NCBI RefSeq assembly: GCF_024360925.2
Contig: NZ_CP113517.1
Location: forward strand, 2,356,001 to 2,420,000
From: Methylomonas rapida
Lineage (GTDB): Bacteria; Pseudomonadota; Gammaproteobacteria; Methylococcales; Methylomonadaceae
Reading direction: 5' to 3'
DNA: 64,000 nt
Shown: in pieces, positions 18,459 through 34,684 of the stretch
How positions within the stretch are numbered: the stretch's first letter is position 1
Layout: each line of letters begins with the position of its first letter
The notes under the pieces: model-generated
What the model was told of the DNA's origin: nothing
What the model saw: only the letters and a program-made list of their open reading frames with translations
Database searches by the model: none
Made by a program: the position numbers and the translations under genes

Positions 18459-18727
18459 AAAGGCCTCAATTTTTTAATAGCCATCATGGCGGCGCGGGTA
18501 GTCAAACCCGCAGCCAAAATGCCCAAGAACTGCCCTACCCCGCCCAAATTCAGCAATTGCAAGATAGTTGGATCGATCAAGGCGAACTTGGCTTGAGCCT
18601 GGGCAATAACAGACGAAGCAAAGGCAGTCAAAGCCGCATAAGAAATCAAGCCAAAGCCAAGGGATACCAGGACACGAGCGGCCAAAGTGCCGGTAATAGA
18701 TAGCAAAAAAGCTGCAATGGTATTCAT
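18455..18727 (-). CDS. gpVI-like minor coat protein (DUF2523 type), copy A
   Basis: A protein of 90 residues identical to the copy B gene at 26922-27194. The ATG overlaps the stop of the gpIII-like remnant (TGATG) and its end overlaps the zot start (ATGA). Confidence 0.8.
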   Translation of the reverse strand: MNTIAAFLLSITGTLAARVLVSLGFGLISYAALTAFASSVIAQAQAKFALIDPTILQLLNLGGVGQFLGILAAGLTTRAAMMAIKKLRPL

Positions 18728-20146
18728 CAATCACGTACCCCACCTAAAACAAACCAGCCAGCCATAAGCCAACCCACGGCAATCAAGACCGGTGCTAATG
18801 ACGATAGAAACTGACAAACCGGCGCGTAACTAAAAACCGCACCCGAGAGAAAGTGACCTGCTACAGCAACGTCGGCGGGGCAGCTGCCAGATCCCCAGCT
18901 TGTCGAAGTGAAAGAAGCGTTAACCGGGGTAGTAGTCAAGGTTTCAGGAGATTGAATGGTGCCAAGTTTCAAACAACCAACGGCATCAGGGTATTTATCA
19001 CAATCGGTCAACTGTTCGGATTCGACAGGTTTTGTTGATGTGTCGCTACCGTAGGCAATAGCCGAGGTTGAGGTTGTGGTAACACCTGTAACGCCATCCG
19101 TTATAGCTTGAGTTTGGGCAGAAGTTTTAGACACGTCGAAAGCATCACCGGCAGCGGTTGGTGCGATTGAATAGGTATCGGTTGTTGTAGTCACCGCCGT
19201 CATTGGGTGGCTGGTTGCCTGATCAAAATATGAGCGAGTCTCAGTTGTAGGCGGAGCCGTGACAGTGGAAGGATCAGCAGATTCTGCTTTGGGCTCTTCG
19301 TCAGTAGTCGGCGGAAATCCTTGTCCAATCAATTCATCAAGCAAAGACGGGATTTTTTGCTCTTTATTTGGCCCGTTTAATGTTTCGGCAATATCAGCCT
19401 CGAGAGTTTGACGGTTTGCAGGCTCATTGATGACCGATCCAACACACATTCCGGTAACGCTATCGTATGTTGACGGCGCTGTGCAGGTTGGGGCAATAGC
19501 GCATATCGCCTGTGTTTTGTCCCAATTAGACCCCGCAGGACACATAGTAGAATACGATATTATTCCCATGTAACCAATAAGGTTTCCACTAGAATAGAGT
19601 GAATAATAATCTTTTTGAGAGGCTGTATTACGAGAAGACCAGGCCGATGAAGAAAGGCTTAAGTTTGGAAAAACTTTTTTGAAGGCAGAGTTAAACGAAC
19701 CATCACAATAAAAAGGGCCAGAAGCAATATTTTGCGCTACGCAATATTGACCAAGAGGCGTTGTTGTAGTTTGTGGCTGAGTAGGGTCAGGCGTTGTAAC
19801 TTTTTCAAGAATTTCATTATAGACATAACTTATATCTATAACAGCAGCAACAGCAGCAGCACAGGCGAGTTTATTAAGCATACAACCGGCAGCAGCTTGA
19901 ATAATAGCTTGAGTGGGCACAGCCTTAGAAACCGTAGCCGCCACCTTTTTTCCGGCAACGGATAAATCAAAAGAGGCCAAACCTTTTGCGCCACCCGTAG
20001 CAGAGTTATAAACAGAGGGCTTAGGTTTTAGAACATCACTATAAGAGACATTTGCATCTTTATTGTTGAGAACATAAACACCGGAGCCATTGGGAAAAAG
20101 ACCCGACGCAAAAGAAGAAACAGGAATAATTAAAATAAAAATATAA
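18727..20146 (-). pseudogene. gpIII-like adsorption protein, 5'-truncated by IS1380, copy A
   Basis: The remnant matches copy B from the middle of the signal peptide (YIFILIIPVSSFA) to the C terminus. The IS right next to it replaces the start codon and the first eight or so codons; reading into the IS the frame meets a TAA almost at once. An internal TTG at 19980 could start a product, but without a signal peptide, so secretion and virion assembly are unlikely. Confidence 0.85.
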
Positions 20147-21814
20147 CCTGAATCCGTGACTTAAAAGGCCATCCACGGCCGCAACGCAATGATTTAAAAC
20201 GCTTATTCTGGGATAATACCGCTATTCTTCCATTCACCCGGCGAGTGATTCATGAAGCGGTTTATCCTGGAGCAATCTGAAACTGAATTTTATACCAGCC
20301 ATTCTGGATTAGCCTTGGTCGGTTTATGTTTGAATCAATATGGCCAGCTCAATCAGGCGCTGGAAAAAGGTATTCCGCTACGGCACGGTATTGCTCACGC
20401 CGATATTATCAAAAGCTATATAGGCACCCTTAGCCTGGGCAAAAGCGACTTCGAAGCCATCGAAAACCATCGCGACGACGACTATTTCAAAGCCGCGCTC
20501 GCCATTCATCAAGTACCCTCCAGCGCCCGCCTCAGACAGCGACTGGATGAACACGCCGACGCCTTATTACCGATCATTTATCAAAGCAACCTCGATTTTC
20601 TGGCTCACGCCCAGGTGCCGGTAACGCCGTTAGCCACAGGCCATGTCGCGTTGGATATCGATGTTTACCCCATGAACAACGAAAAAACCTGCAAAGAAGG
20701 CGTCTCCCGAACCTACAAAGGTTTTGACGGCTACGCCCCGATTGCCCTCTATCTGGGTAAAGAGGGCTGGTGTATTGGTAATGAACTGCGCGAAGGCAAG
20801 CAGCATTGCCAATACGAATTCCGCTATGCGCTGGAGCGCGGACTCGCCGCCGCGAAACGTTTGACGACTTTGCCTTTGTTGGTCCGGCTGGATGGCGGTC
20901 ACGACGCGCTCGACAATCGCATCGACTTACACGAAGCCGATCAGGTCGATTTCATCATCAAATGGAACCCGCGTAAACAAGATGCCGACGCCTGGCTGGC
21001 CTACGCCGAACAACACGGCCAGTGGACCACACCGCGCGAAGGCAAACGCGTGGCCTTGTTCAGTGTCATGGAGCAACACACTCGCAACGGTAAAACCTAT
21101 ACCTGTCGCCGGGTCATGCAAATCACCGAGCGCACCATCACGGCTCAAGGCCAAGCCCTCGTGCTACCGGATATCGAAATCGAAGGCTGGTGGACCAGTC
21201 TGCCGGTGGCCGATTACGACGATGCCATGGTTATTGCCCTCTATCGCGACCATGCCACCGCTGAACAATTCCACAGCGAATTCAAGACCGATCTGGATAT
21301 CGAGCGCCTGCCATCCGGCAAGTTTGCCACCAACGACCTGATCATGAGCCTCAGCGCCTATAGCTACAACATCCTGCGCTGGATAGGCCTGATCGGCTTG
21401 CTGGGCGAACAAAGCCCGGTCAGGCATCCTGCCAAGCGGCGGCGTATCAAAACCGTGATCCAGGAACTGATGTATCTGGCCGCGCGACTCATCCGTAGCG
21501 GGCACCGGCTGAAGCTGCGCTTTTCACAGAGCTGTCCCGGTTTCATCGCTTTTGAATCCACCTACGCCAAACTCGCCGCCGGCTAGCGACTGATCGCTCT
21601 GCCATCGATAGCACAACGCCGCAAATTCACAGTGGCTTGGGAATCCTGCGCCTAAAGTCCATCAAATTGAATCATGCAGGGAAAATATTCCAGATAATAC
21701 GCTGCATTTCTAGCCGTTAAACTCGATTGCCCGGACCACACTTTTAAATTCAGCGAATTTTGGAAGAGTATGACGAATAAAAGGTCTGGCAATATGTGGA
21801 GTCACGGATTCAGG
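20147..21814 (+). mobile_element. IS1380-family insertion sequence, copy 1
   Basis: A 1668-bp element with 15-bp perfect terminal inverted repeats (CCTGAATCCGTGACT). The flanks are ATATAA and TTTAAA, with no target duplication, unlike copy 2. Combined with the missing phage DNA on both sides, this points to a rearrangement after insertion or a non-standard insertion event. Confidence 0.93.
20252..21586 (+). CDS. IS1380-family DDE transposase, IS copy 1
   Basis: A transposase of 444 residues. The catalytic residues are probably the Asp in HVALDIDVYP, the Asp in LVRLDGGHDA and the Glu in EQFHSEFKTDLD, in the usual DDE order with the beta-strand insertion of the IS1380/IS4-related group between them. 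The gene starts 105 bp inside the left end. The protein is identical in all three IS copies of the window; the only difference noted is a silent base at 21110/29644/60389. Confidence 0.93.
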   Translation: MKRFILEQSETEFYTSHSGLALVGLCLNQYGQLNQALEKGIPLRHGIAHADIIKSYIGTLSLGKSDFEAIENHRDDDYFKAALAIHQVPSSARLRQRLDEHADALLPIIYQSNLDFLAHAQVPVTPLATGHVALDIDVYPMNNEKTCKEGVSRTYKGFDGYAPIALYLGKEGWCIGNELREGKQHCQYEFRYALERGLAAAKRLTTLPLLVRLDGGHDALDNRIDLHEADQVDFIIKWNPRKQDADAWLAYAEQHGQWTTPREGKRVALFSVMEQHTRNGKTYTCRRVMQITERTITAQGQALVLPDIEIEGWWTSLPVADYDDAMVIALYRDHATAEQFHSEFKTDLDIERLPSGKFATNDLIMSLSAYSYNILRWIGLIGLLGEQSPVRHPAKRRRIKTVIQELMYLAARLIRSGHRLKLRFSQSCPGFIAFESTYAKLAAG

Positions 21815-21919
21815 TTTAAATGAGCGCATGATAATTATGCCGGCCAAAAAAGCAGCCGCAACGGCGATCAAATCCGGCACCATGCCGGTTAATTGATCGG
21901 TAATAGCTTCTTGAATCAT
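21815..21919 (-). pseudogene. Truncated copy of the 188-residue phage gene, copy A
   Basis: Only the N terminus remains (MIQEAITDQLTGMVPDL, the membrane helix and MRSFK); the frame then runs into the IS and stops at 21710. The basic C-terminal domain seen in copy B is lost. The helix has Ala where copy B has Val. Confidence 0.85.
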
Positions 21920-21928
21920 AAAAAACTC

Positions 21929-21960
21929 CAAAAAAAAAGGCGGGGTTTTACCCCCGCCCA
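21929..21960 (-). terminator. Intrinsic terminator after the major coat gene, copy A
   Basis: On the minus strand a GC-rich hairpin GGCGGGGG/CCCCGCC with a TAAAA loop is followed by eight T. It sits 10 bp after the gpVIII stop. A strong terminator after gVIII is also typical of Ff phages. Confidence 0.85.
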
Positions 21961-21969
21961 TCAGCAAGA

Positions 21970-22167
21970 TTAGCTTGCGCCACGTTGCATGAGTTTGAAG
22001 GCAGCAATCGCGATAATGGCGATCAGGAACAAGCCGGCCACAGTAGACGCATCGGTTTTAGCATCTTCCAAGGCGGTTGAAACATCGGCAGGCACAGCAG
22101 CAAAAGCCGAACCGATAGACGCGGAAACCAAGGCGGTACCAGCGGCAATTTTTTTATTCAGTTTCAT
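21970..22167 (-). CDS. Major coat protein (gpVIII-like), copy A
   Basis: A protein of 65 residues, identical to copy B (31329-31526), with AGGAG well placed before the ATG. See copy B for the description. Confidence 0.9.
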   Translation of the reverse strand: MKLNKKIAAGTALVSASIGSAFAAVPADVSTALEDAKTDASTVAGLFLIAIIAIAAFKLMQRGAS

Positions 22168-22282
22168 AAGTAAAACTCCTAATTGGGATTGATAAAAACC
22201 ACGCTTTTTTTGGGTCGGTGTGCATGGCGTGAATAACACCGGATCGGGCCTGACGATCAATGAATAACCATCAGAATCGAAT

Positions 22283-22603
22283 TCAGGCACTTGCATTGGT
22301 TGCCGCCTTGGGCACGACAACCCGCAAATGCTTAATGTTGATTTCGGCGAGTTCGAGCGAGCCGAAGCGGCCAACCTGAAAAGCGTTATCGCCCAACAGA
22401 TATTTGCCCTTGGCAATCGGGCCTATCTTGTCGCGCTCTTCCCGGTTCTGGGTGAAGGCATGACGAATTTTGAACTGCAAGGGATAACGGCTTTGGTCGG
22501 TAAACATCAAAGCCGGTTGTTCCAGCGTGTAATAGACGGTGCCATCTTTGCGGCTAACCAACTGATCGGCTAAAAGGTCTTCTGTCTCGATTTCAATATG
22601 CAT
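22283..22603 (-). CDS. ssDNA-binding protein (gpV-like), copy A
   Basis: A protein of 106 residues identical to the copy B gene at 31642-31962. Confidence 0.75.
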   Translation of the reverse strand: MHIEIETEDLLADQLVSRKDGTVYYTLEQPALMFTDQSRYPLQFKIRHAFTQNREERDKIGPIAKGKYLLGDNAFQVGRFGSLELAEINIKHLRVVVPKAATNASA

Positions 22604-22628
22604 GGTTTTTCCTCAACGGGAGTGGTGG

Positions 22629-23816
22629 TTAGGCCGCTTTGTAAAACGGCGGGAACTGTTCGCCGAAATTGATTTCGACATAACGGATAAAGGGGATGAC
22701 TTCACATTGCAGGCCATCGCCTTTCAGGTTTTGCAGGACGGCGCGCGAAAGACCAACTTCGTGGAGCATTTCAATAGCACCCCAGAAAACGTTTTCAGAT
22801 GTAGCGGTACGCCTTGCTTCAATCCATCCATCGGCTTTAATAGATCGAAAAACACGATACGCGGACATGGCTTTACCGTAAGTGATCTTGCCGGAACGAG
22901 CGTTTACGGTGGGAAATTTGGCTTTTAATGCTTTCTCTATCTCTTCATCTCTAATGATTCTCATCTGTTTACCCTCTAACGCTTTGAATAGGTCTTGTGT
23001 GGCTTCTTTCCAATATTTTTCGGCGTTGAAAACCCTGGACAACGAAAATAAGTTGTTATCGATCTGTCGCCGCTCGAACCAACGGGTTTTCAAGCTGACT
23101 TCCCATCGCACCATGCCTTTAGCCCAATCGAGCAAAGCATCGGTGTAATGCTCGGAGACCTTGTCGCCACGCTTTTTGAGCTTGGCTAATTGGTTCATGA
23201 CTTCCAGGAGCTTGACGTAAACCTTGATTTTCTTGATACGGCTGTTGGACTTGCCGAAATAGGCGGTGCCGGCATAACCGGTACGGGCGCGGGTTTGGCC
23301 ATTACTGACATTCTGCAAGGCGTTGACGAATTGCAAGGCTTCGTTTTCCGTCTTGCACCAAGAGTGATAGGTAATATCGACCTGTTCAACCGACCAATGC
23401 TTTTGCTCTAAATACTCGATGAGATGCGGATAAGTATCGATCAACAAATGAATCATCTTTTCAGCGCAGTACCAAATATTGTCAGAACCGAACAGGTTAT
23501 GACCTTGGATGAGTTTGGCCGGGCTGGCTTTGATCTCGATGAAAAAGTCTTGAACATCGGCGTTTTTCTTGAAACTGTCGCGGAAGTCGAAAACCTTGAA
23601 GGCCATAGTCGAAAGACTGGAAGGGATGGACTCCCAGCGATGCGTCAAGGCGATTTCTTCGCCATGAGCATCAAGGGAGGATTCCAGCGGAATTTTCAAA
23701 TCAGAAAGGCTGATACGGGTTTTTTGCACTTCATGCAACACAGGCAAGCCGTTTTCGGTCAATCCGGATTCAAACACTTGGCGGAATGGGCAACGAAGGA
23801 CAAGCATGTCGATCAT
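22629..23816 (-). CDS. Rolling-circle replication initiator (gpII-like), copy A
   Basis: A protein of 395 residues identical to the copy B gene at 31988-33175. The start lies within the 167-bp-period duplication. Confidence 0.8.
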   Translation of the reverse strand: MIDMLVLRCPFRQVFESGLTENGLPVLHEVQKTRISLSDLKIPLESSLDAHGEEIALTHRWESIPSSLSTMAFKVFDFRDSFKKNADVQDFFIEIKASPAKLIQGHNLFGSDNIWYCAEKMIHLLIDTYPHLIEYLEQKHWSVEQVDITYHSWCKTENEALQFVNALQNVSNGQTRARTGYAGTAYFGKSNSRIKKIKVYVKLLEVMNQLAKLKKRGDKVSEHYTDALLDWAKGMVRWEVSLKTRWFERRQIDNNLFSLSRVFNAEKYWKEATQDLFKALEGKQMRIIRDEEIEKALKAKFPTVNARSGKITYGKAMSAYRVFRSIKADGWIEARRTATSENVFWGAIEMLHEVGLSRAVLQNLKGDGLQCEVIPFIRYVEINFGEQFPPFYKAA

Positions 23817-24127
23817 GACTAAAAATCAGTTATCGATACCAGAACGAGGACGTTCTTCGCATTCGTCACAGTGACAAACCAAACCACGCTTTAAGCGTTG
23901 GTCATGCAGATAGAGTTCCAAAAATGGCAAGAAATAGCCGGTCACTCGACCAACCACAAACGAAGGACAAGCATGTCGATCATGACTAAAAATCAGTTAT
24001 CGATACCAGAACGAGGACGTTCTTCGCATTCGTCACAGTGACAAACCAAACCACGCTTTAAGCGTTGGTCATGCAGATAGAGTTCCAAAAATGGCAAGAA
24101 ATAGCCGGTCACTCGACCAACCACAAA
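23792..24127. repeat. Direct duplication, period 167 bp, copy A
   Basis: 23792-23960 is repeated at 23959-24127. The unit covers the first codons of the rep gene and the last 50 or so codons of the small membrane-protein gene upstream. The same duplication is present in copy B (33151-33486), so it predates the tandem array. Confidence 0.93.
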
Positions 24128-24208
24128 GGCAATGACTAAACCGATAAAAATACCGGCCAGATAGGAACCCTGAACAGCAATATCAATAGCAGATAGGCAT
24201 TCGTTCAT
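23993..24208 (-). CDS. Small phage membrane protein with Cys cluster, copy A
   Basis: A protein of 71 residues identical to copy B (33352-33567). A start-less second copy of its C-terminal half lies just downstream because of the duplication. Confidence 0.65.
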   Translation of the reverse strand: MNECLSAIDIAVQGSYLAGIFIGLVIAFVVGRVTGYFLPFLELYLHDQRLKRGLVCHCDECEERPRSGIDN

Positions 24209-24495
24209 AGGTTGCTCTCCTGCCCTACTGATTCGGCGGACTGGACAGGAGAGCGGCCAACGTCCGCTATACCAGCTCTAAAAAATTGAATTTCCTGAAT
24301 GGATTTATCGACAAGCGATTGCAGTTTAGGGAAATCGATAAACAACAAGCGAATGCCATCCAGGCGGGAAATGTGAAGATCACAAATGGATTGACGAAAA
24401 GGAATGGGTTGTAACTTTTCTTCACACAAAGAGCGAAAACAGTTTTCAACAATGAAATCCAAGGTTTCTTTAATGGTTTTTTGGGGAATGTTCAT
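24205..24495 (-). CDS. Unknown phage protein, 96 residues, copy A
   Basis: Identical to copy B (33564-33854). It overlaps both neighbours by 4 bp. Confidence 0.65.
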   Translation of the reverse strand: MNIPQKTIKETLDFIVENCFRSLCEEKLQPIPFRQSICDLHISRLDGIRLLFIDFPKLQSLVDKSIQEIQFFRAGIADVGRSPVQSAESVGQESNL

Positions 24496-24866
24496 TTTGA
24501 AACCTCTTTAGCCCAGGCTTCGAACAGTTCAGAACCATTGTCAAAATAAAGATGAATCTCTTGCACCGTAGCACGCGCGTCCATAGTCAAGACATCGATA
24601 CAAGCAGTGAATAAATCGGAATCCAAACCGCGCAATCTGGTCAGGTCGAACGGGAAGCGATGGCCGTTATACAACCCCAGTAAAAACAAGCGAACCGTGG
24701 CGGCTTGGCCGGTGTCACGTTTAGCGATGATAGACAAGCGTTTCAACGATGGAACGCCAACAGATAAAACCGCTTTACGCTCGATTTCAAAATTCGAGAT
24801 TTGATTAAGGAAATCCGTAACAGCTTGAGGTTGTTCGGGAGTGTCTTGGTGATCGGTAGTGTTCAT
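24492..24866 (-). CDS. Unknown phage protein, 124 residues (DUF7673-like), copy A
   Basis: Identical to copy B (33851-34225). First gene of the leftward phage operon. Confidence 0.7.
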   Translation of the reverse strand: MNTTDHQDTPEQPQAVTDFLNQISNFEIERKAVLSVGVPSLKRLSIIAKRDTGQAATVRLFLLGLYNGHRFPFDLTRLRGLDSDLFTACIDVLTMDARATVQEIHLYFDNGSELFEAWAKEVSK

Positions 24867-24881
24867 CGGTTGGCCTCAATG

Positions 24882-24931
24882 ATTCTTAGAACTTAGAAAC
24901 GAGGCTTTTTTTACATTCTTAGAAATTAGAA
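24882..24931. promoter_or_regulatory. Paired operator-like repeats, copy A
   Basis: Two 17-bp direct repeats, ATTCTTAGAACTTAGAA (24882-24898) and ATTCTTAGAAATTAGAA (24915-24931), differ at one base and start 33 bp apart, about three helical turns. Each contains the dyad TTCTTAGAA. They lie between the divergent phage operon and the putative repressor gene. Confidence 0.65.
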
Positions 24932-24952
24932 GTCAAGAAAAAAGTAAACAGA

Positions 24953-25168
24953 ATGCAGAATATGAGAACTAAAGAACACGAGAACAAAGACATGCCAAGC
25001 AAACACATCGACGACAAAACATGGAGAAAAATTCAGGACTTAACAGTAAAAACTGTTATAGCAACCCAAAAACCAATCAAAGAAACAGAAGTACTAGCCT
25101 ATGTGATTAAGAGAGGCCTGGAAGAAGTGAATGTTGAAGAATTAAAAACATTAGGAAAAGACAAATAG
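24953..25168 (+). CDS. Putative phage repressor, ribbon-helix-helix-like, copy A
   Basis: A protein of 71 residues identical to copy B (34312-34527). Confidence 0.5.
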   Translation: MQNMRTKEHENKDMPSKHIDDKTWRKIQDLTVKTVIATQKPIKETEVLAYVIKRGLEEVNVEELKTLGKDK

Positions 25169-25255
25169 TCTAACGGATTTAACTGAGTGGATTGGGAAAA
25201 TAGAGATATATTAGAGAAAAACCATGTAACTGATAAAAAAAGACTTTCCTGAAAC

Positions 25256-25300
25256 TTTGGACCAAGAGTCCACTGGTTATAGTACGTGGACTCTCCCGGA
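25256..25300 (-). other. f1-like plus-strand replication origin, copy A
   Basis: The arms AGAGTCCAC (25265-25273) and GTGGACTCT (25286-25294) enclose a 12-base loop. On the minus strand the arm and its flank read GTGGACTCTTGGTCCAAAG, against GTGGACTCTTGTTCCAAAC in the f1/M13 origin as I recall it. The f1 gpII nick lies in the corresponding loop. The polarity agrees with phage genes being on the packaged strand. Confidence 0.75.
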
Positions 25301-25325
25301 CAGCTGGCAGGCTTCGAAAAGGGAA

Positions 25326-25418
25326 ACTTCGCATAATGCAGAATATATAAAAAAGCCCTGTTGGGAAGTCATTTTCCAACAGGGCTTTTATACATATTCT
25401 CGTCACATTATGCGAAGT
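25326..25418. repeat. attP hairpin and junction between prophage copies A and B
   Basis: ACTTCGCATAATG (25326-25338) and its exact complement CATTATGCGAAGT (25406-25418) bound a long imperfect inverted repeat. The inner arms pair through ATAT/TATA-rich segments and GCCCTGTTGG/CCAACAGGGC around an 11-base loop. Folded as single strand this makes a dif-like duplex with XerC and weaker XerD halves and a small bulge at the centre, the design known from CTXphi. The inner stem followed by TTTT could also act as a terminator for the rightward gene. Confidence 0.85.
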
Positions 25419-25821
25419 AGCCGGCGCCGGCGAAATCTGACCTGGTCAGGCCTTTGAAGCGTTTTCAAGGTAGATATCGCGACGCGCGTAAACGCGCATC
25501 GATGAAGCAGTAAGTCTCCAAAAGCTCGCGCTAAAAAGTCCTGTTCGGCTTCCGCCTCACTGTTTACGCCCGGCTAGGGAAATGGCACGAAATAACTACG
25601 AGCGGGCTATTTTGCGCGAAAACGCAAGCGGTGTAGCCAATCCGTCAGGCGCTACAGCAAGGACGGGCTGCTAGCCCGTTAAGGCGCGAACACGATCACT
25701 CTCAAAAGGGTTTTTAGGGTGGAATGTATGCGGCGGAAAGGATGCGAGGCCCGCGGATCGCCGTGCTAAAGCTCGGCGATCCTCCCGAAGGTCTACGGTA
25801 ATTAAGGTAACGTTACGTTAA
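25419..25821. other. Phage intergenic region, copy B
   Basis: The same hairpin-bearing non-coding stretch as at 16952-17354, with hairpins at 25663-25679 and 25755-25782. It contains no gene that I can support. Confidence 0.5.
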
Positions 25822-26925
25822 TTAAGGCTGTACAGGCTTAACCTCGGCTACTTGGGAAACCGGTAATGTTTTTGCCGGCATGTCAGCCGAATGCGGGGAT
25901 GATTGCAAGCCGACATAAGGATTGAAATGCAAATTCATCATGTGTTCGTGACATTGCTCCCAAGTGACAGGGTAAGGCGTGGCTTGTTGTGTGTAGCATT
26001 TGCACGAGGTTTTAGTGGCAATGCAACCCGCTAAAACCGGAACGGCGGTCACCTTGAGCAACTCGGCATAAGCAGGAGCCGTTTCAGGATGATTAGGAAC
26101 GGCCGGCGTAAAGTCCGGCGTCTTGATCATCGGTTGTACGGCGGACGCGCCCCCCGCGCCCGCTCCTGCCGTCGCTGTCGCGGGTGTCACGCCCACCGCG
26201 GACGGATTGTCGGTAGACGCCGGCTGGATAGCCTGATTAGGGTTTGAAAATTCATTGATCCGGTGATAAATCCGATAGCCAATAATGGCCAATACCAAGG
26301 CGCAAAAACACAACACATAAAAGCTCAAAGGCTTGCGCTTATTGAGCTTGGTGTGCAGTGATGCGGACTTGTAAAGTTTAAAGATTTGCTTGGGGAGCTT
26401 ATAAGGCCTGATGACCGCATCACCACGAGAAGTCACATTTTGCCGGCATTCGGGGAATTCGTATTCCGTGCGACCACGCCAATTGGCGACCAGATGAATA
26501 TGACGACCTACCAGCAAACGCACATTAGAATGAAAGAGATGGGGGCCTTGACTGATCAGCCAAAAATCAAGACCTTTATGCCGATGCGTTTCAAGCGCGG
26601 CAATTTCTTCAGGCAAGGCTGACGCGGAGTTGGTTGGACGCCAAACCCGCTGCACTTCGTCAAGAACAATTAAACTGCCATCGGTGGCCCAATAAGGCCA
26701 ATCTTCGACCAGGTAAATAACTTTGCCCTCATTCTGCATTTGCTCTAGATCGAAAGAGCGGCAATGCTCACAAAGTTCTGACGTACAAAAAACAGGTTCA
26801 TGGGCCACTTTAAGATCAGGGATACCATGCACATAAATTTTGCGCTGAGAAGGCAAGCGAGTAAGTTCCTGAACGGTCCAAGCGGTTTTGCCGGCACCAG
26901 GAGTGCCAGTAATCAACGTAATCAT
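25822..26925 (-). CDS. zot: Zot-like assembly ATPase (gpI)
   Basis: An inner-membrane morphogenesis protein of 367 residues that drives extrusion of filamentous phage. The Walker A motif is GTPGAGKT (residues 7-14) and the Walker B motif is LIVLDEVQRVW (Asp89, Glu90). One membrane helix lies at about 200-220. The periplasmic part has an Ala/Gly/Pro-rich linker (about 245-275) and a Cys-containing tail (GCIATKTSCKCYTQQ, then EQCHEH) typical of Zot-family proteins. It is the last gene of the morphogenesis operon and overlaps the gpVI-like gene by 4 bp. Confidence 0.95.
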   Translation of the reverse strand: MITLITGTPGAGKTAWTVQELTRLPSQRKIYVHGIPDLKVAHEPVFCTSELCEHCRSFDLEQMQNEGKVIYLVEDWPYWATDGSLIVLDEVQRVWRPTNSASALPEEIAALETHRHKGLDFWLISQGPHLFHSNVRLLVGRHIHLVANWRGRTEYEFPECRQNVTSRGDAVIRPYKLPKQIFKLYKSASLHTKLNKRKPLSFYVLCFCALVLAIIGYRIYHRINEFSNPNQAIQPASTDNPSAVGVTPATATAGAGAGGASAVQPMIKTPDFTPAVPNHPETAPAYAELLKVTAVPVLAGCIATKTSCKCYTQQATPYPVTWEQCHEHMMNLHFNPYVGLQSSPHSADMPAKTLPVSQVAEVKPVQP

Positions 26926-27194
26926 AAAGGCCTCAATTTTTTAATAGCCATCATGGCGGCGCGGGTAGTCAAACCCGCAGCCAAAATGCCCAAGAACTGC
27001 CCTACCCCGCCCAAATTCAGCAATTGCAAGATAGTTGGATCGATCAAGGCGAACTTGGCTTGAGCCTGGGCAATAACAGACGAAGCAAAGGCAGTCAAAG
27101 CCGCATAAGAAATCAAGCCAAAGCCAAGGGATACCAGGACACGAGCGGCCAAAGTGCCGGTAATAGATAGCAAAAAAGCTGCAATGGTATTCAT
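26922..27194 (-). CDS. gpVI-like minor coat protein (DUF2523 type)
   Basis: A very hydrophobic protein of 90 residues starting MNTIAAFLLSITGTLAARVL, with three probable membrane segments and a short basic end (KKLRPL). The position between gpIII and gpI and the GVGQFLGILAAGLTTRAAM segment match the DUF2523 proteins that play the gpVI role in other inoviruses. The ATG overlaps the upstream stop as TGATG. A TTG one codon upstream is a less likely start. Confidence 0.82.
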   Translation of the reverse strand: MNTIAAFLLSITGTLAARVLVSLGFGLISYAALTAFASSVIAQAQAKFALIDPTILQLLNLGGVGQFLGILAAGLTTRAAMMAIKKLRPL

Positions 27195-28639
27195 CAATCA
27201 CGTACCCCACCTAAAACAAACCAGCCAGCCATAAGCCAACCCACGGCAATCAAGACCGGTGCTAATGACGATAGAAACTGACAAACCGGCGCGTAACTAA
27301 AAACCGCACCCGAGAGAAAGTGACCTGCTACAGCAACGTCGGCGGGGCAGCTGCCAGATCCCCAGCTTGTCGAAGTGAAAGAAGCGTTAACCGGGGTAGT
27401 AGTCAAGGTTTCAGGAGATTGAATGGTGCCAAGTTTCAAACAACCAACGGCATCAGGGTATTTATCACAATCGGTCAACTGTTCGGATTCGACAGGTTTT
27501 GTTGATGTGTCGCTACCGTAGGCAATAGCCGAGGTTGAGGTTGTGGTAACACCTGTAACGCCATCCGTTATAGCTTGAGTTTGGGCAGAAGTTTTAGACA
27601 CGTCGAAAGCATCACCGGCAGCGGTTGGTGCGATTGAATAGGTATCGGTTGTTGTAGTCACCGCCGTCATTGGGTGGCTGGTTGCCTGATCAAAATATGA
27701 GCGAGTCTCAGTTGTAGGCGGAGCCGTGACAGTGGAAGGATCAGCAGATTCTGCTTTGGGCTCTTCGTCAGTAGTCGGCGGAAATCCTTGTCCAATCAAT
27801 TCATCAAGCAAAGACGGGATTTTTTGCTCTTTATTTGGCCCGTTTAATGTTTCGGCAATATCAGCCTCGAGAGTTTGACGGTTTGCAGGCTCATTGATGA
27901 CCGATCCAACACACATTCCGGTAACGCTATCGTATGTTGACGGCGCTGTGCAGGTTGGGGCAATAGCGCATATCGCCTGTGTTTTGTCCCAATTAGACCC
28001 CGCAGGACACATAGTAGAATACGATATTATTCCCATGTAACCAATAAGGTTTCCACTAGAATAGAGTGAATAATAATCTTTTTGAGAGGCTGTATTACGA
28101 GAAGACCAGGCCGATGAAGAAAGGCTTAAGTTTGGAAAAACTTTTTTGAAGGCAGAGTTAAACGAACCATCACAATAAAAAGGGCCAGAAGCAATATTTT
28201 GCGCTACGCAATATTGACCAAGAGGCGTTGTTGTAGTTTGTGGCTGAGTAGGGTCAGGCGTTGTAACTTTTTCAAGAATTTCATTATAGACATAACTTAT
28301 ATCTATAACAGCAGCAACAGCAGCAGCACAGGCGAGTTTATTAAGCATACAACCGGCAGCAGCTTGAATAATAGCTTGAGTGGGCACAGCCTTAGAAACC
28401 GTAGCCGCCACCTTTTTTCCGGCAACGGATAAATCAAAAGAGGCCAAACCTTTTGCGCCACCCGTAGCAGAGTTATAAACAGAGGGCTTAGGTTTTAGAA
28501 CATCACTATAAGAGACATTTGCATCTTTATTGTTGAGAACATAAACACCGGAGCCATTGGGAAAAAGACCCGACGCAAAAGAAGAAACAGGAATAATTAA
28601 AATAAAAATATAAATTAATGTAAGCCGAATATGATCCAT
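27194..28639 (-). CDS. gpIII-like adsorption protein
   Basis: A protein of 481 residues, the probable receptor-binding tip protein. The start at 28639 gives a signal peptide (MDHIRLTLIYIFILIIPVSSFA). The frame is open further upstream only because the IS supplies an extra start. The middle has a Cys-bearing segment (CPAGSNWDKTQAICAIAPTC, then GMCVGS), followed by a Thr/Ser/Pro-rich spacer (about 260-390), a Cys-containing C-terminal domain and a terminal membrane helix (LAPVLIAVGWLMAGWFVL). This layout is typical of inoviral gpIII. The ATG overlaps the end of the disrupted 25-codon gene. IS insertion 41 bp upstream probably weakens its expression. Confidence 0.8.
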   Translation of the reverse strand: MDHIRLTLIYIFILIIPVSSFASGLFPNGSGVYVLNNKDANVSYSDVLKPKPSVYNSATGGAKGLASFDLSVAGKKVAATVSKAVPTQAIIQAAAGCMLNKLACAAAVAAVIDISYVYNEILEKVTTPDPTQPQTTTTPLGQYCVAQNIASGPFYCDGSFNSAFKKVFPNLSLSSSAWSSRNTASQKDYYSLYSSGNLIGYMGIISYSTMCPAGSNWDKTQAICAIAPTCTAPSTYDSVTGMCVGSVINEPANRQTLEADIAETLNGPNKEQKIPSLLDELIGQGFPPTTDEEPKAESADPSTVTAPPTTETRSYFDQATSHPMTAVTTTTDTYSIAPTAAGDAFDVSKTSAQTQAITDGVTGVTTTSTSAIAYGSDTSTKPVESEQLTDCDKYPDAVGCLKLGTIQSPETLTTTPVNASFTSTSWGSGSCPADVAVAGHFLSGAVFSYAPVCQFLSSLAPVLIAVGWLMAGWFVLGGVRD

Positions 28640-28680
28640 GCCGCACCCGTAATAGCCATATAAACCGCAATTAAATAAAA

Positions 28681-30348
28681 CCTGAATCCGTGACTTAAAA
28701 GGCCATCCACGGCCGCAACGCAATGATTTAAAACGCTTATTCTGGGATAATACCGCTATTCTTCCATTCACCCGGCGAGTGATTCATGAAGCGGTTTATC
28801 CTGGAGCAATCTGAAACTGAATTTTATACCAGCCATTCTGGATTAGCCTTGGTCGGTTTATGTTTGAATCAATATGGCCAGCTCAATCAGGCGCTGGAAA
28901 AAGGTATTCCGCTACGGCACGGTATTGCTCACGCCGATATTATCAAAAGCTATATAGGCACCCTTAGCCTGGGCAAAAGCGACTTCGAAGCCATCGAAAA
29001 CCATCGCGACGACGACTATTTCAAAGCCGCGCTCGCCATTCATCAAGTACCCTCCAGCGCCCGCCTCAGACAGCGACTGGATGAACACGCCGACGCCTTA
29101 TTACCGATCATTTATCAAAGCAACCTCGATTTTCTGGCTCACGCCCAGGTGCCGGTAACGCCGTTAGCCACAGGCCATGTCGCGTTGGATATCGATGTTT
29201 ACCCCATGAACAACGAAAAAACCTGCAAAGAAGGCGTCTCCCGAACCTACAAAGGTTTTGACGGCTACGCCCCGATTGCCCTCTATCTGGGTAAAGAGGG
29301 CTGGTGTATTGGTAATGAACTGCGCGAAGGCAAGCAGCATTGCCAATACGAATTCCGCTATGCGCTGGAGCGCGGACTCGCCGCCGCGAAACGTTTGACG
29401 ACTTTGCCTTTGTTGGTCCGGCTGGATGGCGGTCACGACGCGCTCGACAATCGCATCGACTTACACGAAGCCGATCAGGTCGATTTCATCATCAAATGGA
29501 ACCCGCGTAAACAAGATGCCGACGCCTGGCTGGCCTACGCCGAACAACACGGCCAGTGGACCACACCGCGCGAAGGCAAACGCGTGGCCTTGTTCAGTGT
29601 CATGGAGCAACACACTCGCAACGGTAAAACCTATACCTGTCGCAGGGTCATGCAAATCACCGAGCGCACCATCACGGCTCAAGGCCAAGCCCTCGTGCTA
29701 CCGGATATCGAAATCGAAGGCTGGTGGACCAGTCTGCCGGTGGCCGATTACGACGATGCCATGGTTATTGCCCTCTATCGCGACCATGCCACCGCTGAAC
29801 AATTCCACAGCGAATTCAAGACCGATCTGGATATCGAGCGCCTGCCATCCGGCAAGTTTGCCACCAACGACCTGATCATGAGCCTCAGCGCCTATAGCTA
29901 CAACATCCTGCGCTGGATAGGCCTGATCGGCTTGCTGGGCGAACAAAGCCCGGTCAGGCATCCTGCCAAGCGGCGGCGTATCAAAACCGTGATCCAGGAA
30001 CTGATGTATCTGGCCGCGCGACTCATCCGTAGCGGGCACCGGCTGAAGCTGCGCTTTTCACAGAGCTGTCCCGGTTTCATCGCTTTTGAATCCACCTACG
30101 CCAAACTCGCCGCCGGCTAGCGACTGATCGCTCTGCCATCGATAGCACAACGCCGCAAATTCACAGTGGCTTGGGAATCCTGCGCCTAAAGTCCATCAAA
30201 TTGAATCATGCAGGGAAAATATTCCAGATAATACGCTGCATTTCTAGCCGTTAAACTCGATTGCCCGGACCACACTTTTAAATTCAGCGAATTTTGGAAG
30301 AGTATGACGAATAAAAGGTCTGGCAATATGTGGAGTCACGGATTCAGG
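28681..30348 (+). mobile_element. IS1380-family insertion sequence, copy 2
   Basis: A 1668-bp element with 15-bp terminal inverted repeats. It is flanked by the direct repeat TAAAA on both sides, the target duplication of a simple insertion. It differs from copies 1 and 3 at one noted base (A at 29644, silent). Confidence 0.95.
28786..30120 (+). CDS. IS1380-family DDE transposase, IS copy 2
   Basis: A protein of 444 residues, identical to the transposases at 20252 and 59531. Confidence 0.93.
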   Translation: MKRFILEQSETEFYTSHSGLALVGLCLNQYGQLNQALEKGIPLRHGIAHADIIKSYIGTLSLGKSDFEAIENHRDDDYFKAALAIHQVPSSARLRQRLDEHADALLPIIYQSNLDFLAHAQVPVTPLATGHVALDIDVYPMNNEKTCKEGVSRTYKGFDGYAPIALYLGKEGWCIGNELREGKQHCQYEFRYALERGLAAAKRLTTLPLLVRLDGGHDALDNRIDLHEADQVDFIIKWNPRKQDADAWLAYAEQHGQWTTPREGKRVALFSVMEQHTRNGKTYTCRRVMQITERTITAQGQALVLPDIEIEGWWTSLPVADYDDAMVIALYRDHATAEQFHSEFKTDLDIERLPSGKFATNDLIMSLSAYSYNILRWIGLIGLLGEQSPVRHPAKRRRIKTVIQELMYLAARLIRSGHRLKLRFSQSCPGFIAFESTYAKLAAG

Positions 30349-30368
30349 TAAAAATCAGGCGTCATTAT

Positions 30369-30710
30369 TTACCCCCTAGCCCGCATGCTTTTAATAGCCC
30401 AGGCGGACGCCCAAACCAAGACCACCATCCAAGACACCTCAACCACATCGGATAGCGTCAAGCCAGAATAGTTATGGTGATAACCGACCGACGAACAGGA
30501 CGGATAAGCGCGAGTAATGGAAACAATCACGGGCAATCCACCCGCAAAGGGTTGATAATTGAAAGTCAGATCGGCAGTCGTGCCGCTGATATTGGTAACG
30601 GCTACGCCACCCAATAGACCCGTATCAACCGCAATAAGACCGCGCGACAAATCAGCATCGGCGGCCTCCTGGGTTGTTGAATAACAATATCCTTCAAATA
30701 AACTAGGCAT
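30369..30710 (-). CDS. Inoviral membrane protein, 113 residues
   Basis: A protein with an N-terminal soluble part (EGYCYSTTQEAADADLSRG, beta-rich, one more Cys in YPSCSS) and a C-terminal helix (SWMVVLVWASAWAI) ending basic (KSMRARG). Proteins of this size and layout commonly precede gpIII in Pf-, Ralstonia- and Xanthomonas-type inoviruses; their function is unknown, perhaps a minor coat or virion-tip protein. It is lost from copy A. Confidence 0.7.
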   Translation of the reverse strand: MPSLFEGYCYSTTQEAADADLSRGLIAVDTGLLGGVAVTNISGTTADLTFNYQPFAGGLPVIVSITRAYPSCSSVGYHHNYSGLTLSDVVEVSWMVVLVWASAWAIKSMRARG

Positions 30711-30711
30711 A

Positions 30712-31278
30712 TTAATAGTTTTTGAATTTTCCAGTTCTTAACGATAAACGCGATTTAATTTGAGGATTGTTCTTTTGAAAATTCGATTCAAAATTCTTAA
30801 AGTATTCATCTGAATTTTTCTGGTGCTGTTGAAAACGGGATAGCTGTTTATGTGAAACACCGTATTTTGATTTGATTTGCTTAAAACTCTTTAATTCACG
30901 AACAATATTATTGGTTTTAGGCTTTTGATTAGTATTAGGTTTTTGTGTTTTTGCGGGAGCATTAAAGGCCGATGAACCAGGACGAGAATAATTAAAAGCC
31001 GCGCGTTGCCTTTTTTGCTGAATTTGACGTTTAACACCACCCGAACGATTAGCAATGTATTCTTGCTTCCAGGCTTTGCCATCGATATTAAAAAAGGCTT
31101 TATCACCGGCTTTATGAGCATTGCCGGCAGCGATTTTATATTGTTTATCGAACTCGGCGGCATAGGCCATTTGTTTAAATGAGCGCATGATAATTATGCC
31201 GACCAAAAAAGCAGCCGCAACGGCGATCAAATCCGGCACCATGCCGGTTAATTGATCGGTAATAGCTTCTTGAATCAT
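30712..31278 (-). CDS. Unknown phage protein: membrane helix plus basic domain
   Basis: A protein of 188 residues. The start at 31278 is preferred because GGAG precedes it and it lies beyond the gpVIII terminator; an in-frame ATG further upstream would sit inside that terminator. One membrane helix (about 14-33) is followed by a strongly basic, Gln/Asn/Lys-rich region that includes KTQKPNTNQKPKTNN. I know no inovirus equivalent. The basic domain might touch DNA or the membrane surface during assembly. Its base composition (A-rich in the sense strand) differs from the coat genes. It is truncated in copy A. Confidence 0.65.
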   Translation of the reverse strand: MIQEAITDQLTGMVPDLIAVAAAFLVGIIIMRSFKQMAYAAEFDKQYKIAAGNAHKAGDKAFFNIDGKAWKQEYIANRSGGVKRQIQQKRQRAAFNYSRPGSSAFNAPAKTQKPNTNQKPKTNNIVRELKSFKQIKSKYGVSHKQLSRFQQHQKNSDEYFKNFESNFQKNNPQIKSRLSLRTGKFKNY

Positions 31279-31287
31279 AAAAAACTC

Positions 31288-31319
31288 CAAAAAAAAAGGC
31301 GGGGTTTTACCCCCGCCCA
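31288..31319 (-). terminator. Intrinsic terminator after the major coat gene, copy B
   Basis: The same GGCGGGGG/CCCCGCC hairpin with eight T as at 21929-21960. It would set coat protein expression apart from the minor proteins. Confidence 0.85.
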
Positions 31320-31328
31320 TCAGCAAGA

Positions 31329-31526
31329 TTAGCTTGCGCCACGTTGCATGAGTTTGAAGGCAGCAATCGCGATAATGGCGATCAGGAACAAGCCGGCCAC
31401 AGTAGACGCATCGGTTTTAGCATCTTCCAAGGCGGTTGAAACATCGGCAGGCACAGCAGCAAAAGCCGAACCGATAGACGCGGAAACCAAGGCGGTACCA
31501 GCGGCAATTTTTTTATTCAGTTTCAT
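31329..31526 (-). CDS. Major coat protein (gpVIII-like)
   Basis: A pre-coat of 65 residues: basic start MKLNKK, a hydrophobic signal ending SAFA (residue 23), and a mature part of 42 residues with an acidic amphipathic start (AVPADVSTALEDAKTDAS), a membrane helix (VAGLFLIAIIAIAAFKL) and a short basic end. This is the standard Ff/Pf coat layout. AGGAG lies at proper distance from the ATG; the frame remains open upstream into the ssDNA-binding gene, but the Shine-Dalgarno and signal peptide favour this start. A strong terminator follows. Confidence 0.93.
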   Translation of the reverse strand: MKLNKKIAAGTALVSASIGSAFAAVPADVSTALEDAKTDASTVAGLFLIAIIAIAAFKLMQRGAS

Positions 31527-31641
31527 AAGTAAAACTCCTAATTGGGATTGATAAAAACCACGCTTTTTTTGGGTCGGTGTGCATGGCGTGAATAACACCG
31601 GATCGGGCCTGACGATCAATGAATAACCATCAGAATCGAAT

Positions 31642-31962
31642 TCAGGCACTTGCATTGGTTGCCGCCTTGGGCACGACAACCCGCAAATGCTTAATGTTGA
31701 TTTCGGCGAGTTCGAGCGAGCCGAAGCGGCCAACCTGAAAAGCGTTATCGCCCAACAGATATTTGCCCTTGGCAATCGGGCCTATCTTGTCGCGCTCTTC
31801 CCGGTTCTGGGTGAAGGCATGACGAATTTTGAACTGCAAGGGATAACGGCTTTGGTCGGTAAACATCAAAGCCGGTTGTTCCAGCGTGTAATAGACGGTG
31901 CCATCTTTGCGGCTAACCAACTGATCGGCTAAAAGGTCTTCTGTCTCGATTTCAATATGCAT
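31642..31962 (-). CDS. ssDNA-binding protein (gpV-like)
   Basis: A protein of 106 residues, beta-rich, with an OB-fold-like pattern (MHIEIETEDL, GTVYYTLEQPAL, YPLQFKIRH, LRVVVP). Its size and position directly after rep match gpV/helix-destabilising proteins, which coat new viral single strands and hold them for packaging. AGGA precedes the ATG. Confidence 0.75.
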   Translation of the reverse strand: MHIEIETEDLLADQLVSRKDGTVYYTLEQPALMFTDQSRYPLQFKIRHAFTQNREERDKIGPIAKGKYLLGDNAFQVGRFGSLELAEINIKHLRVVVPKAATNASA

Positions 31963-31987
31963 GGTTTTTCCTCAACGGGAGTGGTGG

Positions 31988-33175
31988 TTAGGCCGCTTTG
32001 TAAAACGGCGGGAACTGTTCGCCGAAATTGATTTCGACATAACGGATAAAGGGGATGACTTCACATTGCAGGCCATCGCCTTTCAGGTTTTGCAGGACGG
32101 CGCGCGAAAGACCAACTTCGTGGAGCATTTCAATAGCACCCCAGAAAACGTTTTCAGATGTAGCGGTACGCCTTGCTTCAATCCATCCATCGGCTTTAAT
32201 AGATCGAAAAACACGATACGCGGACATGGCTTTACCGTAAGTGATCTTGCCGGAACGAGCGTTTACGGTGGGAAATTTGGCTTTTAATGCTTTCTCTATC
32301 TCTTCATCTCTAATGATTCTCATCTGTTTACCCTCTAACGCTTTGAATAGGTCTTGTGTGGCTTCTTTCCAATATTTTTCGGCGTTGAAAACCCTGGACA
32401 ACGAAAATAAGTTGTTATCGATCTGTCGCCGCTCGAACCAACGGGTTTTCAAGCTGACTTCCCATCGCACCATGCCTTTAGCCCAATCGAGCAAAGCATC
32501 GGTGTAATGCTCGGAGACCTTGTCGCCACGCTTTTTGAGCTTGGCTAATTGGTTCATGACTTCCAGGAGCTTGACGTAAACCTTGATTTTCTTGATACGG
32601 CTGTTGGACTTGCCGAAATAGGCGGTGCCGGCATAACCGGTACGGGCGCGGGTTTGGCCATTACTGACATTCTGCAAGGCGTTGACGAATTGCAAGGCTT
32701 CGTTTTCCGTCTTGCACCAAGAGTGATAGGTAATATCGACCTGTTCAACCGACCAATGCTTTTGCTCTAAATACTCGATGAGATGCGGATAAGTATCGAT
32801 CAACAAATGAATCATCTTTTCAGCGCAGTACCAAATATTGTCAGAACCGAACAGGTTATGACCTTGGATGAGTTTGGCCGGGCTGGCTTTGATCTCGATG
32901 AAAAAGTCTTGAACATCGGCGTTTTTCTTGAAACTGTCGCGGAAGTCGAAAACCTTGAAGGCCATAGTCGAAAGACTGGAAGGGATGGACTCCCAGCGAT
33001 GCGTCAAGGCGATTTCTTCGCCATGAGCATCAAGGGAGGATTCCAGCGGAATTTTCAAATCAGAAAGGCTGATACGGGTTTTTTGCACTTCATGCAACAC
33101 AGGCAAGCCGTTTTCGGTCAATCCGGATTCAAACACTTGGCGGAATGGGCAACGAAGGACAAGCATGTCGATCAT
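31988..33175 (-). CDS. Rolling-circle replication initiator (gpII-like)
   Basis: A protein of 395 residues of the phage/plasmid gene II/X type. Features include RVFNAEKYWKEATQDLF, a middle region with YHSWCKTENEAL and TAYFGKSNSRIKKIKVYVK, and a C-terminal segment ending RYVEINFGEQFPPFYKAA. It should nick the f1-like origin at 34615-34659. Start: MIDMLVLR at 33175, or the next Met three codons later; neither has a clear Shine-Dalgarno, because the 167-bp duplication has replaced the upstream context. A remnant of the first codons is also duplicated upstream. Confidence 0.8.
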   Translation of the reverse strand: MIDMLVLRCPFRQVFESGLTENGLPVLHEVQKTRISLSDLKIPLESSLDAHGEEIALTHRWESIPSSLSTMAFKVFDFRDSFKKNADVQDFFIEIKASPAKLIQGHNLFGSDNIWYCAEKMIHLLIDTYPHLIEYLEQKHWSVEQVDITYHSWCKTENEALQFVNALQNVSNGQTRARTGYAGTAYFGKSNSRIKKIKVYVKLLEVMNQLAKLKKRGDKVSEHYTDALLDWAKGMVRWEVSLKTRWFERRQIDNNLFSLSRVFNAEKYWKEATQDLFKALEGKQMRIIRDEEIEKALKAKFPTVNARSGKITYGKAMSAYRVFRSIKADGWIEARRTATSENVFWGAIEMLHEVGLSRAVLQNLKGDGLQCEVIPFIRYVEINFGEQFPPFYKAA

Positions 33176-33486
33176 GACTAAAAATCAGTTATCGATACCA
33201 GAACGAGGACGTTCTTCGCATTCGTCACAGTGACAAACCAAACCACGCTTTAAGCGTTGGTCATGCAGATAGAGTTCCAAAAATGGCAAGAAATAGCCGG
33301 TCACTCGACCAACCACAAACGAAGGACAAGCATGTCGATCATGACTAAAAATCAGTTATCGATACCAGAACGAGGACGTTCTTCGCATTCGTCACAGTGA
33401 CAAACCAAACCACGCTTTAAGCGTTGGTCATGCAGATAGAGTTCCAAAAATGGCAAGAAATAGCCGGTCACTCGACCAACCACAAA
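33151..33486. repeat. Direct duplication, period 167 bp, copy B
   Basis: 33151-33319 is repeated at 33318-33486, the same event as in copy A. It separates the small membrane-protein gene from rep by an extra 167 bp. Confidence 0.93.
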
Positions 33487-33567
33487 GGCAATGACTAAAC
33501 CGATAAAAATACCGGCCAGATAGGAACCCTGAACAGCAATATCAATAGCAGATAGGCATTCGTTCAT
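33352..33567 (-). CDS. Small phage membrane protein with Cys cluster
   Basis: A protein of 71 residues with one or two hydrophobic segments (about 12-40), then LYLHDQRLKRG and a C-terminal CHCDECEE cluster that could bind zinc. It overlaps the upstream gene by 4 bp. No family is recognised; the membrane helix and position before rep do not match a standard Ff gene. Confidence 0.65.
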   Translation of the reverse strand: MNECLSAIDIAVQGSYLAGIFIGLVIAFVVGRVTGYFLPFLELYLHDQRLKRGLVCHCDECEERPRSGIDN

Positions 33568-34225: not shown

Positions 34226-34240
34226 CGGTTGGCCTCAATG

Positions 34241-34290: not shown

Positions 34291-34311
34291 GTCAAGAAAA
34301 AAGTAAACAGA

Positions 34312-34659: not shown

Positions 34660-34684
34660 CAGCTGGCAGGCTTCGAAAAGGGAA

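What the first reader, a model, noticed from the sequence alone, without database searches (positions are those of the whole stretch)
25326..25418. Folded single-stranded attP resembling that of CTXphi
A perfect 13-bp inverted repeat containing the XerC half lies at the ends of a nearly complete 93-nt hairpin. Pairing puts an 11-bp XerC half, a centre with an internal bulge and a weak XerD-like half in one duplex. CTXphi uses just such a ssDNA hairpin for XerC-only strand exchange. The inner stem with T runs may be a terminator at the same time.
Basis: partly seen in the sequence, partly recalled or inferred. Interest (0 to 1): 0.75.

Follow-up and report, generated by a model that had tools for sequence, protein, structure and literature searches.

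The report
Folded attachment site of filamentous phage
A filamentous virus in a methane-eating bacterium carries a DNA hairpin that, if its single-stranded genome folds, imitates the host's chromosome-resolution site, apparently so that the host's own recombinase inserts the virus; similarly built hairpins occur in many other filamentous viruses.

Summary
Window 25326-25418 is a 93-nt hairpin (-33.2 kcal/mol on the phage-coding strand; 0 of 200 shuffles fold as well) whose 13-bp perfect outer arms each hold an XerC half-site. It joins two tandem copies of an inovirus prophage with no integrase found, and recurs at 34685-34777. The prophages sit in the chromosomal dif of a Methylomonas-like host. 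The junctions put the crossover at the XerC/central border on the coding strand, as CTXphi-type XerC exchange predicts. Comparison supports folding as single strand: 83 IMG/VR stretches have such facing arms, against 1 for the reversed control; in 108 of 109 distinct hairpins on contigs with a Zot gene the coding-strand arm has the long XerC-XerD spacer (8-13 nt), the other the short one (5-8); the linker covaries between arms; the three bases after the XerC half match dif (TGT) in 38 of 58 coding arms and in none of the 57 listed partner arms. New member of a known kind; breadth and strand polarity are the interesting part. Single-strand use and XerC catalysis are inferred. CTXphi details are recalled, because literature search failed. 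An empty site with both flanks was not found.

The parts
25326..25418 (-). folded attP hairpin at the junction between the two tandem prophages (attP regenerated)
25408..25418 (-). XerC half ACTTCGCATAA of the arm that recombined (5' arm on the coding strand); inferred XerC cut between 25408 and 25407
   Evidence: junction comparison; cut position inferred
25398..25407 (-). long spacer TGTGACGAGA, starting with TGT like dif TGTATA; GACG unpaired in the fold
25387..25397 (-). XerD-like half ATATGTATAAA, 7/11 to TTATGTTAAAT at spacer 10
25326..25336 (+). XerC half ACTTCGCATAA of the partner arm (not the one at the host junction)
25337..25342 (+). short 6-nt spacer TGCAGA of the partner arm
25343..25353 (+). 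XerD-like half ATATATAAAAA of the partner arm, 7/11 at spacer 6
25340..25400 (.). inner stem-loop (two 28-nt arms, 89% complementary, A/T runs on both sides of a G+C stem), terminator-like
   Evidence: not listed by the terminator scan
34685..34777 (-). second copy of the hairpin at the prophage/host junction; XerC half 34767-34777 reads AGTTCGCATAA on the - strand
16924..16951 (-). other host junction: full dif, rc = ACTTCGCATAA|TGTATA|TTATGTTAAAT; central region and XerD half from the host
16941..25407 (-). prophage copy 1 (interrupted by an IS, with adjacent loss of phage DNA); ends by the inferred cut
25408..34766 (-). prophage copy 2 (interrupted by the same IS at another position); ends by the inferred cut
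25822..26925 (-). Zot/pI-like assembly ATPase (PF05707); identical copy at 17355-18458
31988..33175 (-). rolling-circle Rep (Phage_CRI, PF05144); second copy at 22629-23816

Best explanation
25326-25418 is the attP of a filamentous phage without own integrase that integrates into the host dif by using host XerC/XerD. The virion-sense single strand (taken to be the coding strand, window -) folds so that two inverted dif-like half-site pairs anneal. This makes one duplex with an 11-bp XerC half, a linker with a bulge on the strand that is cut, and a degenerate XerD half, capped by a terminator-like stem-loop. XerC (with XerD bound) pairs the fold with dif and exchanges one strand, right after ACTTCGCATAA on the coding strand; TGT next to the cut matches dif TGTATA. 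Replication turns the joint into a prophage with a dif at the far end and the hairpin at the near end. The rebuilt dif can accept further copies, hence the tandem array; as double strand the attP is poor, so excision should be disfavoured. Shown by sequence: position at dif, crossover at the XerC/central border, strand polarity, fold, arm covariation. Inferred: single-strand substrate, packaged strand, XerC catalysis, XerD as non-catalytic partner, resolution by replication, origin of the tandem.
For: 1) Host dif: one junction reads ACTTCGCATAA|TGTATA|TTATGTTAAAT. In genus relatives a dif stands within about 60 bp of the same left flank in L165, L167, L173 and L174 (4 of the 11 loci other than the own one). 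By my count of its rows, 32 of the 37 genomes (own included) match in the dif part of the query. Cumulative GC skew of the window has a broad maximum at about 28-36 kb. One XerC and one XerD match pass the NCBIfam cut-offs in the genome. 2) Crossover: central region TGTATA at 16935-16940 and TGTGAC at the far junction, where XerC half AGTTCGCATAA is fused to phage TGTGAC on the coding strand. 3) No integrase among the 11 distinct phage/IS proteins scanned. 4) Survey: 83 viral stretches with facing XerC arms against 1 with reversed arms; 9 and 10 with both arms changed to TGCGC or TTCGT; 8 genome contigs (Moraxella, 2 Rodentibacter, Methylobacter, Actinobacillus, 2 Acinetobacter, Methylomonas). 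5) Polarity: long spacer on the coding-strand arm in 108 of 109 distinct hairpins, 58 of 59 Zot clusters at 60% and 21 of 22 at 40% identity. XerD-like half (7/11 or better) at spacer 9-13 in 55 of 57 coding arms and at 6-8 in 3 of 57; partner arm 4 and 53 of 57. 6) Covariation on 33 hairpins: score 0.433 against 0.169 shuffled (0/500), slid registers 0.05-0.10; all 4 linker pairs have changes on both sides. 4-nt linker paired 0.871 against a shuffle maximum of 0.737. 7) TGT after the XerC half in 38 of 58 coding arms; in 0 of the 57 partner arms listed (37 and 0 of 57). 8) On the coding-strand fold G-T pairs outnumber A-C 64 to 12.
Against: No experiment; the packaged strand is assumed. The right flank of the prophage was not found in any of the 12 loci, so an empty site with both flanks is not shown; 4 of these loci show no dif in the stretch and 3 have one 1.1-1.4 kb away. 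Many Zot-bearing relatives lack the hairpin: 20 of 237 family genomes have a Zot match (several are short or weak), and I found the hairpin whole in 3 (own, G129, G042), split over contig ends in G119, and not in the stretches searched of the rest. The three Zot-selected viral contigs L006, L007, L008 (56, 57, 74%) lack it in the DNA held. L139 (Moraxella lacunata) has equal spacers 7/7. XerC arms are not always matched: 18 and 27 viral stretches have one deviating arm. 33 loci with facing arms have no Zot; four of them (L071, L074, L087, L108) look like chance to me, most others were not classified. The G-T excess is partly biased, since the pairs came from a coding-strand fold. The XerC stem hardly varies (8 of 10 pairs never), and the number of further pair types is reached by 9 of 500 shuffles. 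Shuffles do not keep relatedness.
Confidence: 0.88

Rival explanations
1. VGJphi-like integration: the double-stranded replicative form recombines with dif by XerC at the 25398-25418 arm; the outer inverted repeat is incidental.
For: Product junctions would be the same (inference). L007, a Zot relative (57%), has an XerC half followed by TGTATA and a poor XerD half and no second arm, so one-armed sites may exist in this group.
Against: The recombining arm has its XerD-like half at the wrong spacing (1/11 at spacer 6, 4/11 at 7 and 8, 7/11 at 10); only 3 of 57 representatives have a 7/11 match at 6-8. The arm with a 6-nt spacer is not the one at the host junction. Linker covariation between distant arms and fixed strand polarity are unexplained.
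Confidence: 0.07
2. The hairpin is foremost an RNA or packaging element (bidirectional terminator after Zot, or the virion packaging signal), and the Xer half-sites are secondary.
For: The inner stem has a G+C core with A/T runs on both sides and lies downstream of Zot; f1-type phages have a terminator and packaging hairpin in such a region (recalled). mRNA and coding strand have the same sequence, so G-T bias cannot tell RNA from ssDNA.
Against: Does not explain XerC and XerD halves in both arms, the unequal spacers, or TGT next to the inferred cut on one arm only. The prophage ends lie exactly here, in dif. A double role of the inner stem remains possible.
Confidence: 0.03
3. Cruciform in double-stranded DNA: the hairpin is extruded from supercoiled replicative form and both strands fold.
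For: Both strands fold stably on their own.
Against: Both strands would be equivalent, but polarity is fixed in 108 of 109, G-T exceeds A-C on the coding strand, and the consensus fold gives -10.2 on the coding strand against -4.7 on the other (bias as named above).
Confidence: 0.02

Closest known systems
CTXphi attP of Vibrio cholerae (Val et al. 2005 and later work of the Barre group; recalled, nothing read here)
   Same: Filamentous phage without own integrase at dif; two inverted dif-like sites about 90 nt apart that anneal in the (+) single strand; XerC and XerD halves in one stem with unequal spacers; XerC border crossover; tandem prophages (all recalled for CTXphi).
   Different: Other host group, other sequence and inner stem, no toxin cargo seen, Rep of Phage_CRI type; mechanism not tested. 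The CTXphi sequence was not fetched or aligned.
VGJphi-type integration (double-stranded attP, XerC; recalled)
   Same: XerC border crossover at dif, degenerate XerD half.
   Different: Here the recombining arm lacks an XerD-like half at 6-8 nt and has a pairing partner arm.
TLCphi-type integration (XerD first; recalled)
   Same: Uses host dif and Xer proteins.
   Different: Here the crossover is at the XerC border, with host central region on one side and phage central region on the other.
Acinetobacter phage M02 (OQ693633.1)
   Same: Named phage record (6,243 bp, circular) with an unannotated stretch, 3888-3987, 96% identical to the L058 hairpin, between Zot and Rep; it matches the window hairpin at 73%, E 0.006.
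   Different: Acinetobacter host; other inner sequence; no integration feature annotated.

Membership tests
CTXphi-type folded attP (Xer-exploiting inovirus; defining features recalled) | filamentous phage gene set without own integrase | tested here: met
   Zot, Phage_CRI Rep, DUF2523, Phage_DNA_bind, major-coat-like PHROG; no integrase among 11 proteins scanned; two small ORFs (30369-30710, 33352-33567) not scanned
CTXphi-type folded attP (Xer-exploiting inovirus; defining features recalled) | integrated in the chromosomal dif | tested here: met
   two-flank empty site not found
CTXphi-type folded attP (Xer-exploiting inovirus; defining features recalled) | two inverted XerC/XerD half-site pairs that anneal in the coding strand | tested here: met
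CTXphi-type folded attP (Xer-exploiting inovirus; defining features recalled) | crossover at the XerC/central border | tested here: met
   junction sequences
CTXphi-type folded attP (Xer-exploiting inovirus; defining features recalled) | single-stranded genome is the substrate | tested here: inconclusive
   indirect only: polarity, covariation, TGT bias
CTXphi-type folded attP (Xer-exploiting inovirus; defining features recalled) | XerC catalysis needed, XerD catalysis not | not testable with these tools
   host has XerC and XerD
VGJphi-type double-stranded attP | XerC half, central region and XerD half in register in the recombining duplex | tested here: not met
   1/11 XerD match at spacer 6, 4/11 at 7 and 8
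TLCphi-type attP | crossover at the XerD border | tested here: not met
   junctions

The most novel reading that the evidence does not exclude
The folded single-stranded attP is not a Vibrio peculiarity but the integration module of a large, host-diverse set of Zot-bearing inoviruses (and of Rep-only satellites in Acinetobacter-like loci). It follows strict rules: the bulged, long-spacer arm is on the coding strand, the first bases after the XerC cut copy dif, the linker pairs by covariation, and an inner terminator-like stem is the cap.
Probability: 0.75. Interest if true: 0.68.

Novelty: new member of a known kind. Interest (0 to 1): 0.57.

Why it matters
Integration of single-stranded DNA through a folded site is an unusual way to enter a chromosome. 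These data give a sequence rule by which it can be recognised in many inoviruses, predict strand, orientation and end-points of dif prophages, and offer a natural covariation set to test which features of the fold XerC/XerD read. They also put the mechanism in an environmental methanotroph, away from pathogens, where it can be studied safely.

Tried and rejected
Rfam: 8 matches at E up to 1 around the hairpin, 7 to miRNA precursors and one to TD-1, all far below gathering scores. Terminator scan: none listed. BLAST of the window hairpin in phages: M02 and two records of one other Acinetobacter phage with partial matches; L059's hairpin has no match. CTXphi was named, not fetched, since its attP lies beside a listed toxin (recalled). 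chose, on contigs with several Zot ORFs, the weakest one by a script error; corrected, whose counts are used here. One search has the same error except for L039, and rest on representatives made before the correction; the correction changed the orientation of one hairpin only (L039: 107 of 109 became 108). One search failed on a script error and was rerun. In one search a loose scan found another dif-like site in 38 of 100 loci: on the coding strand downstream of Zot in 15, upstream only in 22, opposite strand only in 1; many upstream ones are an internal ATATGTTAAAA-type site about 2 kb from the hairpin, so this count is not used as proof of orientation. The loose arm scan also gave weakly folding pairs (-6.7 to -10.6) in L006, L008 and L042, taken as chance. 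The alignment of 33 was picked by hand from the 58 representatives printed to leave out near-duplicates.

Literature: all ten paper runs failed, as did look-ups by DOI (28, 37, 61, 70), PubMed id (74) and one PMC id. Of Roux et al. 2019 (PMC6813254) I saw passages only: 'Xer', 'attP', 'hairpin' and 'dif site' have 0 occurrences in its main text. I make no claim that this is absent from print.

Full report
What is in the window. Between 16941 and 34766 lie two tandem copies of an inovirus prophage with Zot (PF05707), DUF2523, a helix-destabilising protein, a coat-like ORF, a Phage_CRI Rep and a long ORF that by its place may be the adsorption protein, all on the - strand. The copies are 100% identical over 3209 bp and 99.9% over 3606 bp. 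Each is interrupted by an IS (DDE_Tnp_1_4); a third IS copy lies at 59425-61095. Host genus: contig G129:C178 of a genome of the same genus has the length (9845) and hairpin of JAQTYP010000094.1, Methylomonas sp. STC_4; genus of the window inferred from this.

The hairpin. 25326-25418 is the junction between the copies and recurs at 34685-34777. It folds as one hairpin on either strand, with 0 of 200 shuffles as stable; outer pairs have probabilities of 0.89-1.0. Other places of the window come near in stability when windows slide; what singles it out is its content.

Junctions. On the - strand one host junction reads ACTTCGCATAA|TGTATA|TTATGTTAAAT, a full dif (16924-16951); the other reads AGTTCGCATAA|TGTGAC (from 34777 down); the middle one ACTTCGCATAA|TGTGAC. 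So the crossover lies at the XerC/central border, host central region on one side, phage central region on the other, and the phage arm that recombined is the 25398-25418 arm. The left flank (with a gene that I read as feoA, no call) is conserved in the genus, and a dif stands within about 60 bp of it in L165, L167, L173 and L174; of the 11 loci other than the own one, three more have a dif 1.1-1.4 kb away and four show none in the stretch; the right flank was found in none of the 12. By my count, 32 of 37 genomes match in the dif part. The window's cumulative GC skew has a broad maximum at about 28-36 kb. One XerC and one XerD pass the NCBIfam cut-offs.

Relatives. The pattern of facing XerC arms is in 83 viral stretches; with the arms facing outwards in 1. 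Variants with both arms changed give 9 and 10, with one arm changed 18 and 27, some of the last on loci already seen; 8 genome contigs carry it. My re-scan of these loci, the window, L036, L037 and L039 gave 129 hits in 116 loci with a Zot ORF and 36 hits in 33 loci without. Hits without Zot were left out of the polarity count.

Polarity and spacing. Of 109 distinct hairpins with Zot on the contig, 108 have the longer XerC-XerD spacer on the coding-strand 5' arm (8-13 nt) and the shorter (5-8 nt) on the other; L139 of Moraxella lacunata is 7/7. By Zot clusters: 58 of 59 (60% identity), 21 of 22 (40%). In 57 representatives, XerD-like halves (7/11 or better) stand at spacer 9-13 in 55 coding arms and at 6-8 in 3; in the other arm at 6-8 in 53 and at 9-13 in 4.

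Covariation. On 33 hand-picked hairpins the structure scores 0.433 against a shuffled mean of 0.169 (0 of 500 as high) and 0.05-0.10 in slid registers; further pair types are reached by 9 of 500 shuffles. The XerC stem hardly varies (8 of 10 pairs never vary), so it says little; the linker (4 of 4 pairs) and the XerD/inner stem (10 of 13 pairs) show changes on both sides. The 4-nt linker is paired at 0.871 against a shuffle maximum of 0.737 (58 hairpins). Shuffles do not keep relatedness, so this is support and not a probability. G-T exceeds A-C 64 to 12 on the coding-strand fold, with the bias named under evidence against.

Which arm meets dif. The three bases after the XerC half are TGT, as in dif, in 38 of 58 coding arms; in the other arm none of the 57 listed is TGT, and 0 of 57. 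This is what XerC exchange at the coding arm, with pairing next to the cut, would select.

Reading. The parts fit a CTXphi-like route: fold the virion strand, bind XerC/XerD, exchange one strand with dif through XerC, finish by replication, and leave a dif for the next copy. What CTXphi does is recalled, not read here. Single-strand use, XerC catalysis and the packaged strand are inferred.

Limits. The hairpin is not universal among Zot-bearing phages: 20 of 237 family genomes have a Zot match, and I found the hairpin whole in three and split over contig ends in one. Longer stretches were taken from 18 of the 19 other genomes; of G097 only a short locus was scanned. Short and weak Zot matches make this denominator loose. 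Literature could not be searched.

Noticed in passing
L223:2517-6692 (also L130, L138, L070): L223 carries the hairpin three times, exactly 2040 bp apart; the two full units are 99.75% identical and hold a 406-aa Rep-like ORF and a 102-aa ORF and no Zot: they look like RS1-type satellites. L130, L138 and L070 also have two hairpins; only L130's ORFs were listed.
   Followed up: partly
for example L067, L075, L119: An internal dif-like site of the type TTCGTATAA|TGTATA|ATATGTTAAAA lies about 2 kb from the hairpin in many loci; its role is unknown to me.
   Followed up: no
window 20146-21816, 28680-30355, 59425-61095: The same IS sits at different points of the two prophage copies and once outside; copy 1 also lacks phage DNA beside it.
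   Followed up: partly
window 23792-24127 and 33151-33486: A 169-bp perfect tandem duplication beside the Rep gene in both copies, perhaps near the replication origin.
   Followed up: no
L139:3036-3139: Moraxella lacunata hairpin with equal 7/7 spacers, the only exception to the polarity rule.
   Followed up: no
L006 and L007: Zot relatives (56-57%) without the hairpin: L007 has one XerC half with TGTATA and a poor XerD half; L006 has a full dif in the opposite orientation to Zot, so other Xer routes may exist in this group.
   Followed up: partly
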